DNA of 64,000 nt from Chamaesiphon minutus PCC 6605. Its GTDB lineage: Bacteria; Cyanobacteriota; Cyanobacteriia; Cyanobacteriales; Chamaesiphonaceae. The position numbers and the translations under genes were made by a program. The notes under the pieces were generated by a model. That model ran no database searches, had not been told where the DNA came from, and was given only the letters and a program-made list of their open reading frames with translations. Position 1 is the first letter of the stretch, and each line of letters starts with the position of its first letter. Shown in pieces: positions 2,597 through 58,582 of the stretch. The stretch spans positions 3,382,385 through 3,446,384 of the forward strand of contig NC_019697.1 of the NCBI RefSeq assembly GCF_000317145.1. The letters run 5' to 3'.

Positions 2597-3760
2597 TTAC
2601 AAAAATTTGGCCATTCTATCGACAGCAAGTTGTAATTTAGCTGGCTCATGCACCAACGCAAATCTGACGTAACCTTCGCCACACTTACCAAATCCGATCC
2701 CTGGAGAAGCGGCGACGCCAGTTTGACAGACTAATTCGGTACAAAATGCGATCGAGTCTTGCGCCCATTGTGGTGGTAACTTTGCCCAGATATACATCAT
2801 CGCTGCTGGTGTGGGTACGTGCCAACCGATTTCATCCAAGGCGGTGACAAAGGTATCGCATCGCTGTTTGAAGGTATCCGCCGTCTGGCGAACGTAACTT
2901 TGGTCGCCTGTGAGTGCGGCCACCGCACCGTGTAAAATGCCTAAATACTGATTGAAGTCGACTACCGCCTTAACTTGGCGCAGAGCTTGAATTAATTGAC
3001 GATTGCCGATCGCATAACCGATTCTAAAGCCGCCCATATTATAGGACTTCGACATCGTAAAAAACTCGATCGAGACACTTTTCTCTCGATCGGCTTGTAA
3101 GATCGATGGTACCCTAACATCGCCAAATACCATATCACCATAGGGGAAGTCGTGTACCAATACCAAATTATGCTGCTGACAAAAAGCAACAGCTTCCTGA
3201 AAGAAGGCTAGGGGCGCGATCGCGGTGGTAGGATTGTGCGGATAGCTCAACACCATCATTCGCGCTTTGGCAAGGGTTGGAGCCGGAATATCCCCCAGTA
3301 CGGGCAAGAATCCATTCTCTGCCAGTAATGGCATCGGGTAAATTTCGCCACCAGCTAAATACACGCCGCCAGCATGAGAAGGATAGCCAGGATCCATCAG
3401 CAAGGCAACATCGCCAGGTTCCAAGATTGCTAAGGGCAAATGTGCCGTTCCCTCTTGAGAACCGATTAGCGGTAATACCTCGGTTTCTGGATCTACTTCA
3501 ATTCCATATTTATTGGTGTACCAATTTGCTGCGGCTTCGCGAAATAATCGCGTCCCGTTAAAGAGCAAATAACCGTGCGTACTCGGATCTACTAACGCTG
3601 ACTGAATTGCCGCGATGACATGCGGTGCTGTCGGCAAGTCTGACGAACCTAGCGATAGATCGATTATCTCTCGTCCCAGTTCTCTCGCTCGTCCTTTTGC
3701 CCGATCCATATCGGCAAATACATTCGATTTTAGTGGTTGGAGCCGTTTGGAAAACTGCAT
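2597..3760 (-). CDS. PLP-dependent class I/II aminotransferase
   Basis: A 387-residue fold-type I aminotransferase, full length for the family. Visible signatures are the N-terminal IDLSLGSSDLPTAP, the substrate/PLP strand SQEGTAHL, SYPHNPTT (the conserved Asn of the PLP pocket), HDFPYGDM (Asp to the pyridine nitrogen), and the Schiff-base lysine in TMSKSYNMGGFRIGY. The close relatives I know are annotated as LL-diaminopimelate or aspartate-type aminotransferases in cyanobacteria, so a role in amino-acid synthesis is likely; the substrate is inferred only. The ATG at 3760 is the natural start. Heptamer tandem repeats lie immediately upstream (3770-3804). Confidence 0.85.
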   Translation of the reverse strand: MQFSKRLQPLKSNVFADMDRAKGRARELGREIIDLSLGSSDLPTAPHVIAAIQSALVDPSTHGYLLFNGTRLFREAAANWYTNKYGIEVDPETEVLPLIGSQEGTAHLPLAILEPGDVALLMDPGYPSHAGGVYLAGGEIYPMPLLAENGFLPVLGDIPAPTLAKARMMVLSYPHNPTTAIAPLAFFQEAVAFCQQHNLVLVHDFPYGDMVFGDVRVPSILQADREKSVSIEFFTMSKSYNMGGFRIGYAIGNRQLIQALRQVKAVVDFNQYLGILHGAVAALTGDQSYVRQTADTFKQRCDTFVTALDEIGWHVPTPAAMMYIWAKLPPQWAQDSIAFCTELVCQTGVAASPGIGFGKCGEGYVRFALVHEPAKLQLAVDRMAKFL

Positions 3761-3804: not shown

Positions 3805-3852
3805 TTCGATGGTTGGGCGATGAAAAAATAATCATAAAGTAGGGTGGGCACT

Positions 3853-3922
3853 GTCTTGTTTCGCTCGCCCTAGAGGGAACCTCCAAAGCGCTTTGGCGGA
3901 GCCTCTCCGATAGGAGATACCG
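3853..3922. repeat. Small palindromic element (GTCTTGT family), copy 1
   Basis: A 70-bp segment starting GTCTTGTTTCGC and ending ATACCG, flanked by CT on both sides (3851-3852 and 3923-3924). It contains internal palindromes such as AAAGCGCTTT. Removing it and one CT restores a palindrome of the GTGGGCA-N-TGCCCAC family seen elsewhere, so it appears to be an insertion into the loop of another repeat. Sister copies are at 22921-22966 and 52493-52564. Confidence 0.65.
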
Positions 3923-3978
3923 CTGCCCACCACATGGATTAGCGACGATCGAAGCTAACAGATGTCGATCGCATTTTC

Positions 3979-4302
3979 TTAAAGATTGCTATCGAGAATT
4001 GTTGCTAATTTATCTTTAGTAATCGCACCCTCACAAGAGTGAATCATTTCATCGCCTTTAAACAAGCGGATGGCGGGAACGCCCTCGACTTTGTAAGTTT
4101 TGACAGTTTCAGGATTGGGATCTACTTCCATTTTGACAACCTTGACTCGATCGCTATAATTGGTAGCAATCCAGTCGATCGATGGCGACACTAACCGACA
4201 AGGCCCGCACCATGCCGCCCACAGGTAGACTAAGACAGGGAGATCTGCTTGTAAAACTTCACTCTCAAATTGTGCGTCATTGATAACGGTAACGCTACTC
4301 AC
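3979..4302 (-). CDS. Thioredoxin
   Basis: A cytosolic thioredoxin of 107 residues with the redox motif WCGPC in YLWAAWCGPCRLVSP, and the cis-proline in GVPAIRLFKG. The reading frame opens further at 4317, but the GTG at 4302 is preferred. It has GGAG nine bases upstream, and it gives the typical N-terminus MSSVTVINDAQFESEVL. It would act in dithiol-disulfide exchange with target enzymes, reduced by a thioredoxin reductase. The first Trp-Ala pair (WAAWCGPC) departs slightly from the common WAPWCGPC. It is a single gene, co-directional with the flanking HAD and aminotransferase genes but with spacers. Confidence 0.92.
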   Translation of the reverse strand: MSSVTVINDAQFESEVLQADLPVLVYLWAAWCGPCRLVSPSIDWIATNYSDRVKVVKMEVDPNPETVKTYKVEGVPAIRLFKGDEMIHSCEGAITKDKLATILDSNL

Positions 4303-4381
4303 TTTGATAAACTCCACAAATGATAGATAAGGATATTATTACCCTCTAGGTTAGAGCAAAACGTGGTGAGGCGATAGTCGG

Positions 4382-10020: not shown

Positions 10021-10048
10021 CTAGCTGGTGGGCATTGCCCACCCTACA
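10021..10048. repeat. Dispersed palindromic repeat (GTGGGCA-TGCCCAC family)
   Basis: A 28-nt repeat with core GGTGGGCATTGCCCACC. Copies or variants are at 51774-51801, 58553-58575, 58476-58500 (degenerate) and, interrupted, 3841-3932. This copy sits in the urtB-urtC spacer. Confidence 0.75.
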
Positions 10049-22869: not shown

Positions 22870-23079
22870 GAGGATGTCTGAAAAGTCTAATTGCTTCGTT
22901 TGCAGTGGGTAAATCCCCCTGTCTTGTCGCACACAAACGGGAGGGAACCTCCCGTTCGATGCGCCGCTAAATCCCCCTTGAAAAGGGGGACTAAGAGTCT
23001 GGTTCCTCCATTTTTAAGGGGGGCTAGGGGGGATTTACTAGGGTTTAAGCTTAACGGAATTGAGTTTTCAGACATCCTC
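22870..23079. mobile_element. MITE-like element with TAA duplication
   Basis: A 210-bp element with terminal inverted repeats GAGGATGTCTGAAAA (left, from 22870) and its complement ending at 23079. It is flanked on both sides by TAA (22867-22869, 23080-23082), a likely target duplication. It encodes no transposase. Its interior has CCCCCTTGAAAAGGGGG-type palindromes and a GTCTTGT small element at 22921-22966. The right 69 bp recur at 46472-46540. Confidence 0.8.
22921..22966. repeat. Small palindromic element (GTCTTGT family), copy 2
   Basis: 46 bp starting GTCTTGTCGC and ending GCGCCG, with CT on both sides (22919-22920, 22967-22968). The centre is the palindrome CGGGAGGGAACCTCCCG. It is inserted in the MITE-like element, so it is younger than that element. 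Confidence 0.7.
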
Positions 23080-51774: not shown

Positions 51775-51801
51775 TAGCTGGTGGGCAGTGCCCACCCTAC
51801 A
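51774..51801. repeat. Dispersed palindromic repeat, copy
   Basis: Same 28-nt sequence as at 10021-10048 except one base in the spacer. Together with 50436-50476 it forms a short element (with AATTATTTATAAGAT-type inverted arms) that interrupts the IS630-1 transposase and was then split by IS630-2. Confidence 0.7.
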
Positions 51802-52492
51802 CGATATCTTATATTTAATTACGCCCAGCTACTTATCGAACGAGTTTTATTACCTCAATTGTGGGTTGGTGCGATTGTCGTCATGGACAATCTCCCCGGA
51901 CATCACGCTAAGCTCGCTGAGGAGTTGATTAAATCTGTTGGCGCGAGCGTTAAATTTCTCCCGCCCTATTCGCCAGATTTATCTCCGATTGAGTTATGTT
52001 GGTCTAAATTGAAAGAAATTCTTCGTTCTATTGGTGCTCGGACTACCGCTCATCTCGAGCGAGCGATCTCGGTGGCAATCGATAGGATCACTGATGATAA
52101 TGCTTTGAGTTGGTTCCATCATTGTGGTCTGTACCTGGAAAAAATTCGCTGATTTTGTGGCACGTTCGATCGCAATTTGCTGTATATCCCAGAAAAATAT
52201 CATTCGTTCGCCTCAGCCAAAATTAAATCTATTTGTCGATCTACGCAGATTAATTCAGCTTCGGCAATACATTAAAAGGTGTCGGATACAAGATATTGAC
52301 CGCTAGATAAAGTAAGACACCACGCGCTCTCGCGTGATGTCCGATTTTCTTCCCACATTATTAACATACCCAGCTTTTTGACAATTATTAATATCGATCG
52401 CGATAATCGTCCCGATATTTTGTAAGTTATGTAATTGAGGATAGTGGGGAGTGGGGAGCGATGCGCGTAACTCCTCCGGAGTGGCTGTGCCT

Positions 52493-52564
52493 GTCTTGTC
52501 GCGCTTTTTACGGCGGGAAACCCCGCCGTTGGCGTAGCCTCTGCGAAAGCAGAAACGTGCGCCG
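52493..52564. repeat. Small palindromic element (GTCTTGT family), copy 3
   Basis: 72 bp starting GTCTTGTCGCGC and ending GTGCGCCG, with CT at 52491-52492 and 52565-52566. Inner palindrome CGGCGGG/CCCGCCG. A further, oppositely oriented start (GTCTTGTCTTG on the minus strand from 52687) suggests a compound array. Confidence 0.6.
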
Positions 52565-52688
52565 CTACGGCAAGCTACTCTTCGAGAACGCTTCGCGAAC
52601 GCCAACGCCAACGGCGGGTTTCCGACGGTTGGCGGATGCGCTCCGGTCGGGAGGTTCTCTCCCGGATTGTGCAAGACAAGACAAGACA

Positions 52689-58418: not shown

Positions 58419-58582
58419 AATTCCCAGTCAATATGAGAGAAAAGATCGCAGGTAAAAACATCTAAATATAATATTAGGTTGGGCATTGCCCAGCATCTAG
58501 GTTTCAGAATATTTCTATTGAATAAACATGTGAGAATTACTTGAGATTGTGATGGTGGGCACTGCCCACCCTACATTTTATA

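What the first reader, a model, noticed from the sequence alone, without database searches (positions are those of the whole stretch)
3841..3932. Tiny mobile element inserted in the loop of another palindrome
The GTGGGCA...TGCCCAC repeat here is split exactly in its centre by 70 bp starting GTCTTGT, with CT on both sides. Insertion into a hairpin loop suggests targeting of cruciform or single-stranded DNA. It fits the general class of small dispersed repeats known from cyanobacteria.
Basis: partly seen in the sequence, partly recalled or inferred. Interest (0 to 1): 0.6.

Follow-up and report, generated by a model that had tools for sequence, protein, structure and literature searches.

The report
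48-letter jumping hairpin inside REP loop
A tiny mobile DNA hairpin, present in over a hundred copies in the cyanobacterium Chamaesiphon, has jumped precisely into the loop of another repeated hairpin; related genomes still carry the empty site, so it is a real and very small mobile element, although the enzyme that moves it is unknown.

Summary
At 3839-3931 a REP palindrome, GTAG-GGTGGGCA-C-TGCCCACC, is split in its one-base loop by 72 nt (3852-3923). The host palindrome belongs to two REP-associated tyrosine transposase (RAYT) genes of this genome. The insert is a compound copy of an undescribed element: tag TGTCTTG, a 45-51 nt hairpin whose stem varies with compensating changes, and a CGC end. 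This copy also carries an inner repeat of about 27 nt. The family has at least 100 copies here and 19-95 in eight other Chamaesiphon genomes, and is nearly absent outside the genus. Mobility is well supported. Three related genomes keep the empty palindrome at this locus. A 48-nt in-frame copy in leuS is missing from relatives. Of 75 junctions, 22 occur uninterrupted elsewhere in the same genome (1.3 by chance), and only if no target duplication is assumed. The 'CT on both sides' is therefore a C|T target plus the element's own terminal T and C. Hairpin loops are an enriched target (10% against 0.9% for stems of at least 8 bp) but not an obligatory one. Best model: REP-like single-stranded transposition at C|T by an HUH enzyme acting in trans. 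The enzyme was not found.

The parts
3839..3851 (+). 5' half of the host REP: GTAG tag (3839-3842), left arm GGTGGGCA (3843-3850), loop base C (3851)
   Evidence: Sequence. The same REP flanks two RAYT genes of the genome. 46 of 51 GTAGGGTGGGCA words in 2.46 Mb are intact palindromes.
3852..3923 (+). Inserted mobile element (compound copy, 72 nt): tag TGTCTTG, degenerate hairpin, CGC end
   Evidence: Empty orthologous sites in G003, G001 and G006. The same compound unit is found in genome G004 with other flanks.
3893..3919 (+). Inner repeat of about 27 nt (TTGGCGGAGCCTCTCCGATAGGAGATA, two small hairpins) nested in the element, replacing part of its 3' stem
   Evidence: Comparison of TGTCTTG elements with and without this segment (969732 against 35726); shared with G004 copies.
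3924..3931 (+). 3' half of the host REP: right arm TGCCCACC
   Evidence: arm pairs with 3843-3850.
22920..22967 (+). Canonical 48-nt copy of the element, inside a larger TAAATCCCCC-containing dispersed repeat
   Evidence: cmsearch 50.4 bits, E 7.6e-9.
52492..52565 (+). Second compound copy (48-nt type with an inner repeat)
52638..52683 (-). Degenerate copy with a tandem (TCTTG)n tag
   Evidence: cmsearch 20.4 bits, E 0.016.
58554..58574 (-). Intact copy of the host REP (GGTGGGCACTGCCCACC + CTAC): paralogous empty site with the same loop base C
51780..51800 (-). Intact copy of the host REP, loop base G
10027..10047 (-). Intact copy of the host REP, loop base T

Best explanation
The insert belongs to a Chamaesiphon-wide family of non-autonomous, REP-like mobile hairpins (unit TGTCTTG-hairpin-CGC, normally 45-51 nt). 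It most likely moves as single-stranded DNA. The strand folds, an enzyme acting in trans cuts at C|T at the 5' tag and again after CGC, and the piece is joined into another pyrimidine|T (usually C|T) step exposed as single strand, without copying any target bases. Exposed hairpin loops, such as the apex of the GTAG-REP here, are therefore favoured targets. Shown: the family, its folded structure with compensating changes, exact ends, absence of target duplication, empty sites, nesting and loop enrichment. Inferred: the single-strand route, and that the enzyme is an HUH/Y1 protein related to RAYT/TnpA_REP.
For: Empty sites at this locus in three relatives. The 48-nt in-frame leuS insertion is filled here and empty where three relatives align through the site. 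22 of 75 junction words are found uninterrupted in the same genome, mean 1.3 for shuffled halves, and only with zero duplication. Flanks are C 53/71 on the left and T 56/71 on the right. Stem covariation: 93% of cells paired and 26 double changes, 0/500 shuffles as high. Loop insertion for stems of at least 8 bp is 7/71 against 0.93% of control sites, p = 2e-5. Three independent elements sit at the same C|T of this REP type. Copies sit in loops of other copies (B0 787888, 810203, 955901). TnpA_REP enzymes cut single-stranded REPs at CT (PMC8266576).
Against: No Y1 transposase gene in this genome carries the element next to it. Across the 28 Y1 loci of the genus the model finds only four scattered matches, one of them strong. 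Each of the four RAYTs here sits by its own GTAG-type repeat. One draft genome (G008, 77% complete) has 24 copies and no PF01797 gene. Most insertions are not in hairpin loops. Orientation against GC skew is inconclusive (p = 0.05). The tag is not GTAG and contains no obvious guide complementary to CT.
Confidence: 0.55

Rival explanations
1. The element spreads through an RNA intermediate: the hairpin is transcribed and the RNA is reverse-spliced or otherwise inserted into DNA or RNA and copied back. An RNA route was suggested for the small dispersed repeats of Nostoc (from memory of Elhai 2008; the paper is not held).
For: Structure is conserved rather than stem sequence; no target duplication; hairpin loops are also favoured sites in RNA; the host REPs may be transcribed.
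Against: No Rfam match. Target steps are only two bases, C|T. Copies insert in both orientations in loops and in coding DNA (leuS, antisense).
Confidence: 0.15
2. A double-strand recombinase with a two-base CT core, such as an IS110/IS1111-family DEDD enzyme guided by a bridge RNA, moves the element.
For: IS621 has a CT core and targets REPs (PMC11208160). 41 of 71 sites are C|T.
Against: 30 of 71 sites are not C|T, and flanks beyond the step carry little shared information. A 48-bp double-stranded circle is physically implausible (inference). IS110 genes were not searched.
Confidence: 0.07
3. Not transposition: hairpins multiply by replication slippage, template switching and gene conversion between repeats.
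For: Runs of (TCTTG)n, inverted apical hairpins and mosaic repeats show such events occur. Several copies travel inside larger dispersed repeats.
Against: Identical ends at dozens of unrelated sites, exact empty sites with zero net change, and a fixed pyrimidine|T target.
Confidence: 0.08
4. Loop enrichment is only survivorship: insertions in REP and hairpin loops are harmless, so they persist, while the insertion machinery ignores structure. (A rival to the targeting step only, so its probability overlaps with the others.)
For: Most surviving copies are in short non-coding gaps rich in palindromes. Over 80% of copies are not in loops.
Against: Loops exceed both nearby pyrimidine|T sites (0.93%) and random non-ORF sites (0.93%) about ten-fold for stems of at least 8 bp, so intergenic location alone does not explain it.
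Confidence: 0.25

Closest known systems
REP sequences of the GTAG and CGTC superfamilies (Di Nocera 2013, PMC3733652)
   Same: Short hairpin with a conserved unpaired 5' tag, high copy, mainly intergenic, sometimes inside genes, sometimes inserted in palindromes. CGTC REPs also lack a linked transposase and may carry TGTC as tag.
   Different: Tag is TGTCTTG with a CGC end; stem sequence is nearly free; copies are single hairpins with mappable exact ends and empty sites, not mainly dimers; confined to one genus.
Small dispersed repeats of cyanobacteria (Elhai 2008; cited in PMC4390886)
   Same: Very small, structured, nested in other repeats and in themselves, precise insertion (SDR5 sits between the third and fourth bases of HIP1).
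   Different: SDRs are 21-27 nt (from memory); this unit is 45-51 nt. SDR sequences could not be compared because the paper is not held. The inner 27-nt repeat here resembles SDRs more.
IS200/IS605 elements and TnpA_REP substrates (PMC8266576, PMC6006769)
   Same: No target duplication, hairpin recognition, cutting at CT for TnpA_REP.
   Different: No autonomous copy found; a single hairpin carries both ends; no fixed tetra- or pentanucleotide 5' target.
Insertion sequences that use REPs as targets (ISPsy8 and others; PMC1525189)
   Same: Insertion at the symmetry axis of a REP hairpin.
   Different: ISPsy8 is a gene-carrying IS that makes a 3-bp direct repeat; here a 48-nt non-coding hairpin with no duplication.

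Membership tests
GTAG REP (host palindrome 3839-3931) | GTAG directly 5' of a palindrome | tested here: met
   GTAG-GGTGGGCA-N-TGCCCACC.
GTAG REP (host palindrome 3839-3931) | Multicopy and flanking a RAYT gene | tested here: met
   46 intact copies in 2.46 Mb. Copies on both sides of RAYT L141 and just after RAYT L142; both proteins hit NF047646 at 178-180 bits.
GTAG/CGTC REP (inserted element) | Tag fits GTAG or CGTC | tested here: not met
   Invariant tag TGTCTTG in alignment A1.
GTAG REP (inserted element) | Linked RAYT gene | tested here: not met
   No element next to any of the 5 Y1 genes of this genome; four scattered matches in 28 Y1 loci of the genus.
Cyanobacterial SDR (inserted element) | Length 21-27 nt | tested here: not met
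   45-51 nt for simple copies; the SDR length is from memory.
Cyanobacterial SDR (inserted element) | Sequence match to a described SDR family | not testable with these tools
   Elhai 2008 not held.
IS200/IS605-derived mini-element | No target duplication | tested here: met
IS200/IS605-derived mini-element | Autonomous element with the same ends and a Y1 gene | tested here: not met
   None among Y1 loci of nine Chamaesiphon genomes; drafts are incomplete.
Classical MITE | Terminal inverted repeats and target duplication | tested here: not met
   Ends TGTCTTG and CGC are not inverted repeats of each other; no duplication.
IS110-type element | Fixed core dinucleotide at both junctions | tested here: not met
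   C|T at 41 of 71 sites only.

The most novel reading that the evidence does not exclude
A new class of single-hairpin mobile element, near the lower size limit for mobile DNA, in which a 7-nt tag and a 3-nt tail are the only fixed sequences, the stem is free to vary, and an unlinked enzyme inserts it at C|T with a preference for extruded hairpin loops, so that mobile hairpins colonise each other's tips.
Probability: 0.35. Interest if true: 0.75.

Novelty: new variant of a known kind. Interest (0 to 1): 0.57.

Why it matters
How REP-like hairpins spread is an open question because moves are rarely caught. Here many copies with exact ends, empty sites within the same genome and in sister species, and a genus-wide range of copy numbers make the mobile unit, its cut sites and its target rule directly testable. 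It also shows REP loops acting as landing sites for another hairpin element, and in-frame insertion into an essential tRNA synthetase gene.

Tried and rejected
CT target duplication (rejected). Classical MITE (no TIR, no duplication). Known Rfam RNA (no match). Search for GCGCCGCT alone: not enriched. Linkage to the genome's own Y1 genes: none found. Replication-strand bias: GC skew too weak, p = 0.05. Wide distribution: the WCGCRC subtype occurs in 1 of 386 cyanobacterial genomes, and by covariance model in all nine Chamaesiphon genomes, once in a sister genus, with five weak matches in one more genome of 60. Obligatory loop targeting (rejected).

Full report
What is there. The window lies at 3382385-3446384 of a 6.28-Mb chromosome. 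The finding lies in the gap between an aminotransferase gene (2597-3760, minus) and a thioredoxin gene (3979-4317, minus). The sequence reads GTAG GGTGGGCA C | TGTCTTG...CCGC | TGCCCACC.

The host palindrome is a REP. GTAG-GGTGGGCA-N-TGCCCACC occurs intact 46 times in 2.46 Mb, with C as the commonest loop base in a stricter count (18 of 36). Copies flank one RAYT gene on both sides (L141) and follow another at once (L142). Both proteins score 178-180 bits against the NCBIfam model for REP-associated tyrosine transposase. So this palindrome is a GTAG REP of this genome's own REPtrons.

The insert is a member of a family. The word TGTCTTGTCGC occurs 48 times in the genome against 2 for its reversed control, and its copies share a hairpin and an end CGC. 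In 2.46 Mb, TGTCTTG followed by a stem and CGC occurs 109 times, against a mean of 6.7 for 104 permuted heptamers. The 109 include nested and tandem-tag counts. Simple copies are 45-51 nt with mean folding z-score -4.2. Only TGTCTTG, CGC and a few hairpin-tip bases are fixed. The stem changes with compensation: 92.9% of cells paired, 26 double changes, covariation score 0.488 against 0.185 shuffled, 0 of 500 shuffles as high; sliding the partner destroys it.

A covariance model finds 100 copies here (the scoring cap), 19 to 95 in the eight other Chamaesiphon genomes, one in a sister genus and five weak ones in one more genome of 60. One subtype pattern occurs in only 1 of 386 cyanobacterial genomes. 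The copy in the finding is compound: a 27-nt repeat with two small hairpins (3893-3919) replaces part of its 3' stem. The same compound unit sits in genome G004 with different flanks. So the locus is nested three deep: REP, element, inner repeat.

It moves. (a) At the orthologous locus three relatives keep an uninterrupted palindrome: G003 GTAGGGTGGGCAGTGCCCACC, G001 and G006 similar. The loop base differs (G or T against C), so the exact ancestral base is unknown. (b) A 48-nt copy lies in frame inside leuS, adding 16 residues. Three relatives align through the site without it; in two more the alignment stops there. (c) 22 of 75 distinct junction words occur uninterrupted elsewhere in the sample, against 1.3 for shuffled halves. 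Assuming a duplication of 1, 2, 3, 4 or 5 bp gives 1, 0, 0, 0 and 1. (d) Copies nest precisely in other copies. (e) A relative has an 86% match running across another junction (query 345-680), consistent with an empty site.

The target rule. Left of the insert is C in 53 and T in 15 of 71; right is T in 56 and A in 12. C|T is found in 41 of 71, and information beyond the step is low apart from a C preference at -3.

Loops. For perfect stems of at least 8 bp with the junction in the loop, 7 of 71 against 0.93% of pyrimidine|T sites nearby and 0.93% of those outside ORFs (Fisher p = 2e-5). An independent, looser test gave 27% against 5% for stems scoring at least 7. Three different elements sit at the same C|T of the GTGGGCAC|TGCCCAC type (this one, 178762 and L010). 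Others are in GTGTGTT...AACGCACC palindromes (L177, L291). Still, most copies are not in loops. The enrichment supports, and does not prove, insertion into exposed single strands.

Mechanism. Zero duplication, hairpin recognition and CT cutting match what is known of TnpA_REP, which cuts single-stranded REPs at CT (PMC8266576). Against it, no TGTCTTG element flanks any Y1 gene here, each RAYT has its own GTAG repeat, and one incomplete draft has the element but no Y1 gene. CGTC REPs show the same absence of a linked transposase (PMC3733652). I give about 0.95 to 'mobile element with exact ends', 0.6 to a single-stranded DNA route and 0.45 to a Y1 enzyme; the combined statement, with the enzyme marked as inferred, is scored 0.55.

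Comparison with the known. ISPsy8 inserts at the axis of REP hairpins but makes a 3-bp repeat (PMC1525189). REPs inserted within palindromes have been noted (PMC3733652). SDRs are the nearest cyanobacterial concept (PMC4390886), but their sequences could not be compared. The element works like a REP or SDR; by tag, length and lack of a linked gene it is not a member of the described families. Hence a new variant of a known kind.

Noticed in passing
L198 (G000:C1:4070737-4070784, minus): A 48-nt copy lies in frame in leuS and adds 16 residues (SGALRSGSPTMEVRQD) to leucyl-tRNA synthetase; three relatives align through the site without it.
   Followed up: yes
G000:C1:125133 against 532557; general: Some copies differ only by inversion of the apical hairpin (GGGGGGAACCCCC against GGGGGTTCCCCCC), and the same outer stem is combined with different inner hairpins, as if tips are swapped or flipped.
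   Followed up: no
G000:C1:2169399-2169491; window 52638-52683: Runs of (TCTTG)n at the 5' tag, up to about ten units, some explained by insertion at TGTCT|TG of another copy, others apparently by slippage.
   Followed up: partly
L046, L054, B2 2337909 and 2452932; hits: A dispersed palindromic repeat around AGTCCGCCTACGCGGACT ... AGTCCGCGTAGGCGGACT is abundant in Chamaesiphon genomes and hosts several insertions in its small loop.
   Followed up: partly
window 22904-22985 and other TAAATCCCCC loci: A larger dispersed repeat (..GTGGGTAAATCCCCC..TAAATCCCCCTT..) carries the element in about 17 copies, so those copies were multiplied by another mobile unit.
   Followed up: no
L067 (G000:C1:4350981) and L192 (G000:C1:308095): Copies interrupt what read like IS transposase genes; no uninterrupted paralogue was found in this genome at E below 1e-20.
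   Followed up: partly
L139, L140: Two further RAYT-like genes (Y motifs YIINNP, YIRDNP) sit by other GTAG-type repeats (GTAGGGGCGGGTTTA, GTAGGGGCGGTGCC).
   Followed up: partly
L138: A Y1 gene with the motif YVENQKQHH, like subclass 1.2 of PMC6006769, seems broken at its 5' end by a frameshift.
   Followed up: no
G000:C1:2000001-2800000: In this stretch 19 of 23 elements lie on the minus strand, while 0-1.2 Mb is balanced; the GC skew is too weak to say whether this follows replication.
   Followed up: partly
L279 (G009): A single strong copy in a sister genus of the same family, inside a CCCCC/TAAATCCCCC context, identical to a Synechococcales MAG locus (L174); possible transfer.
   Followed up: no
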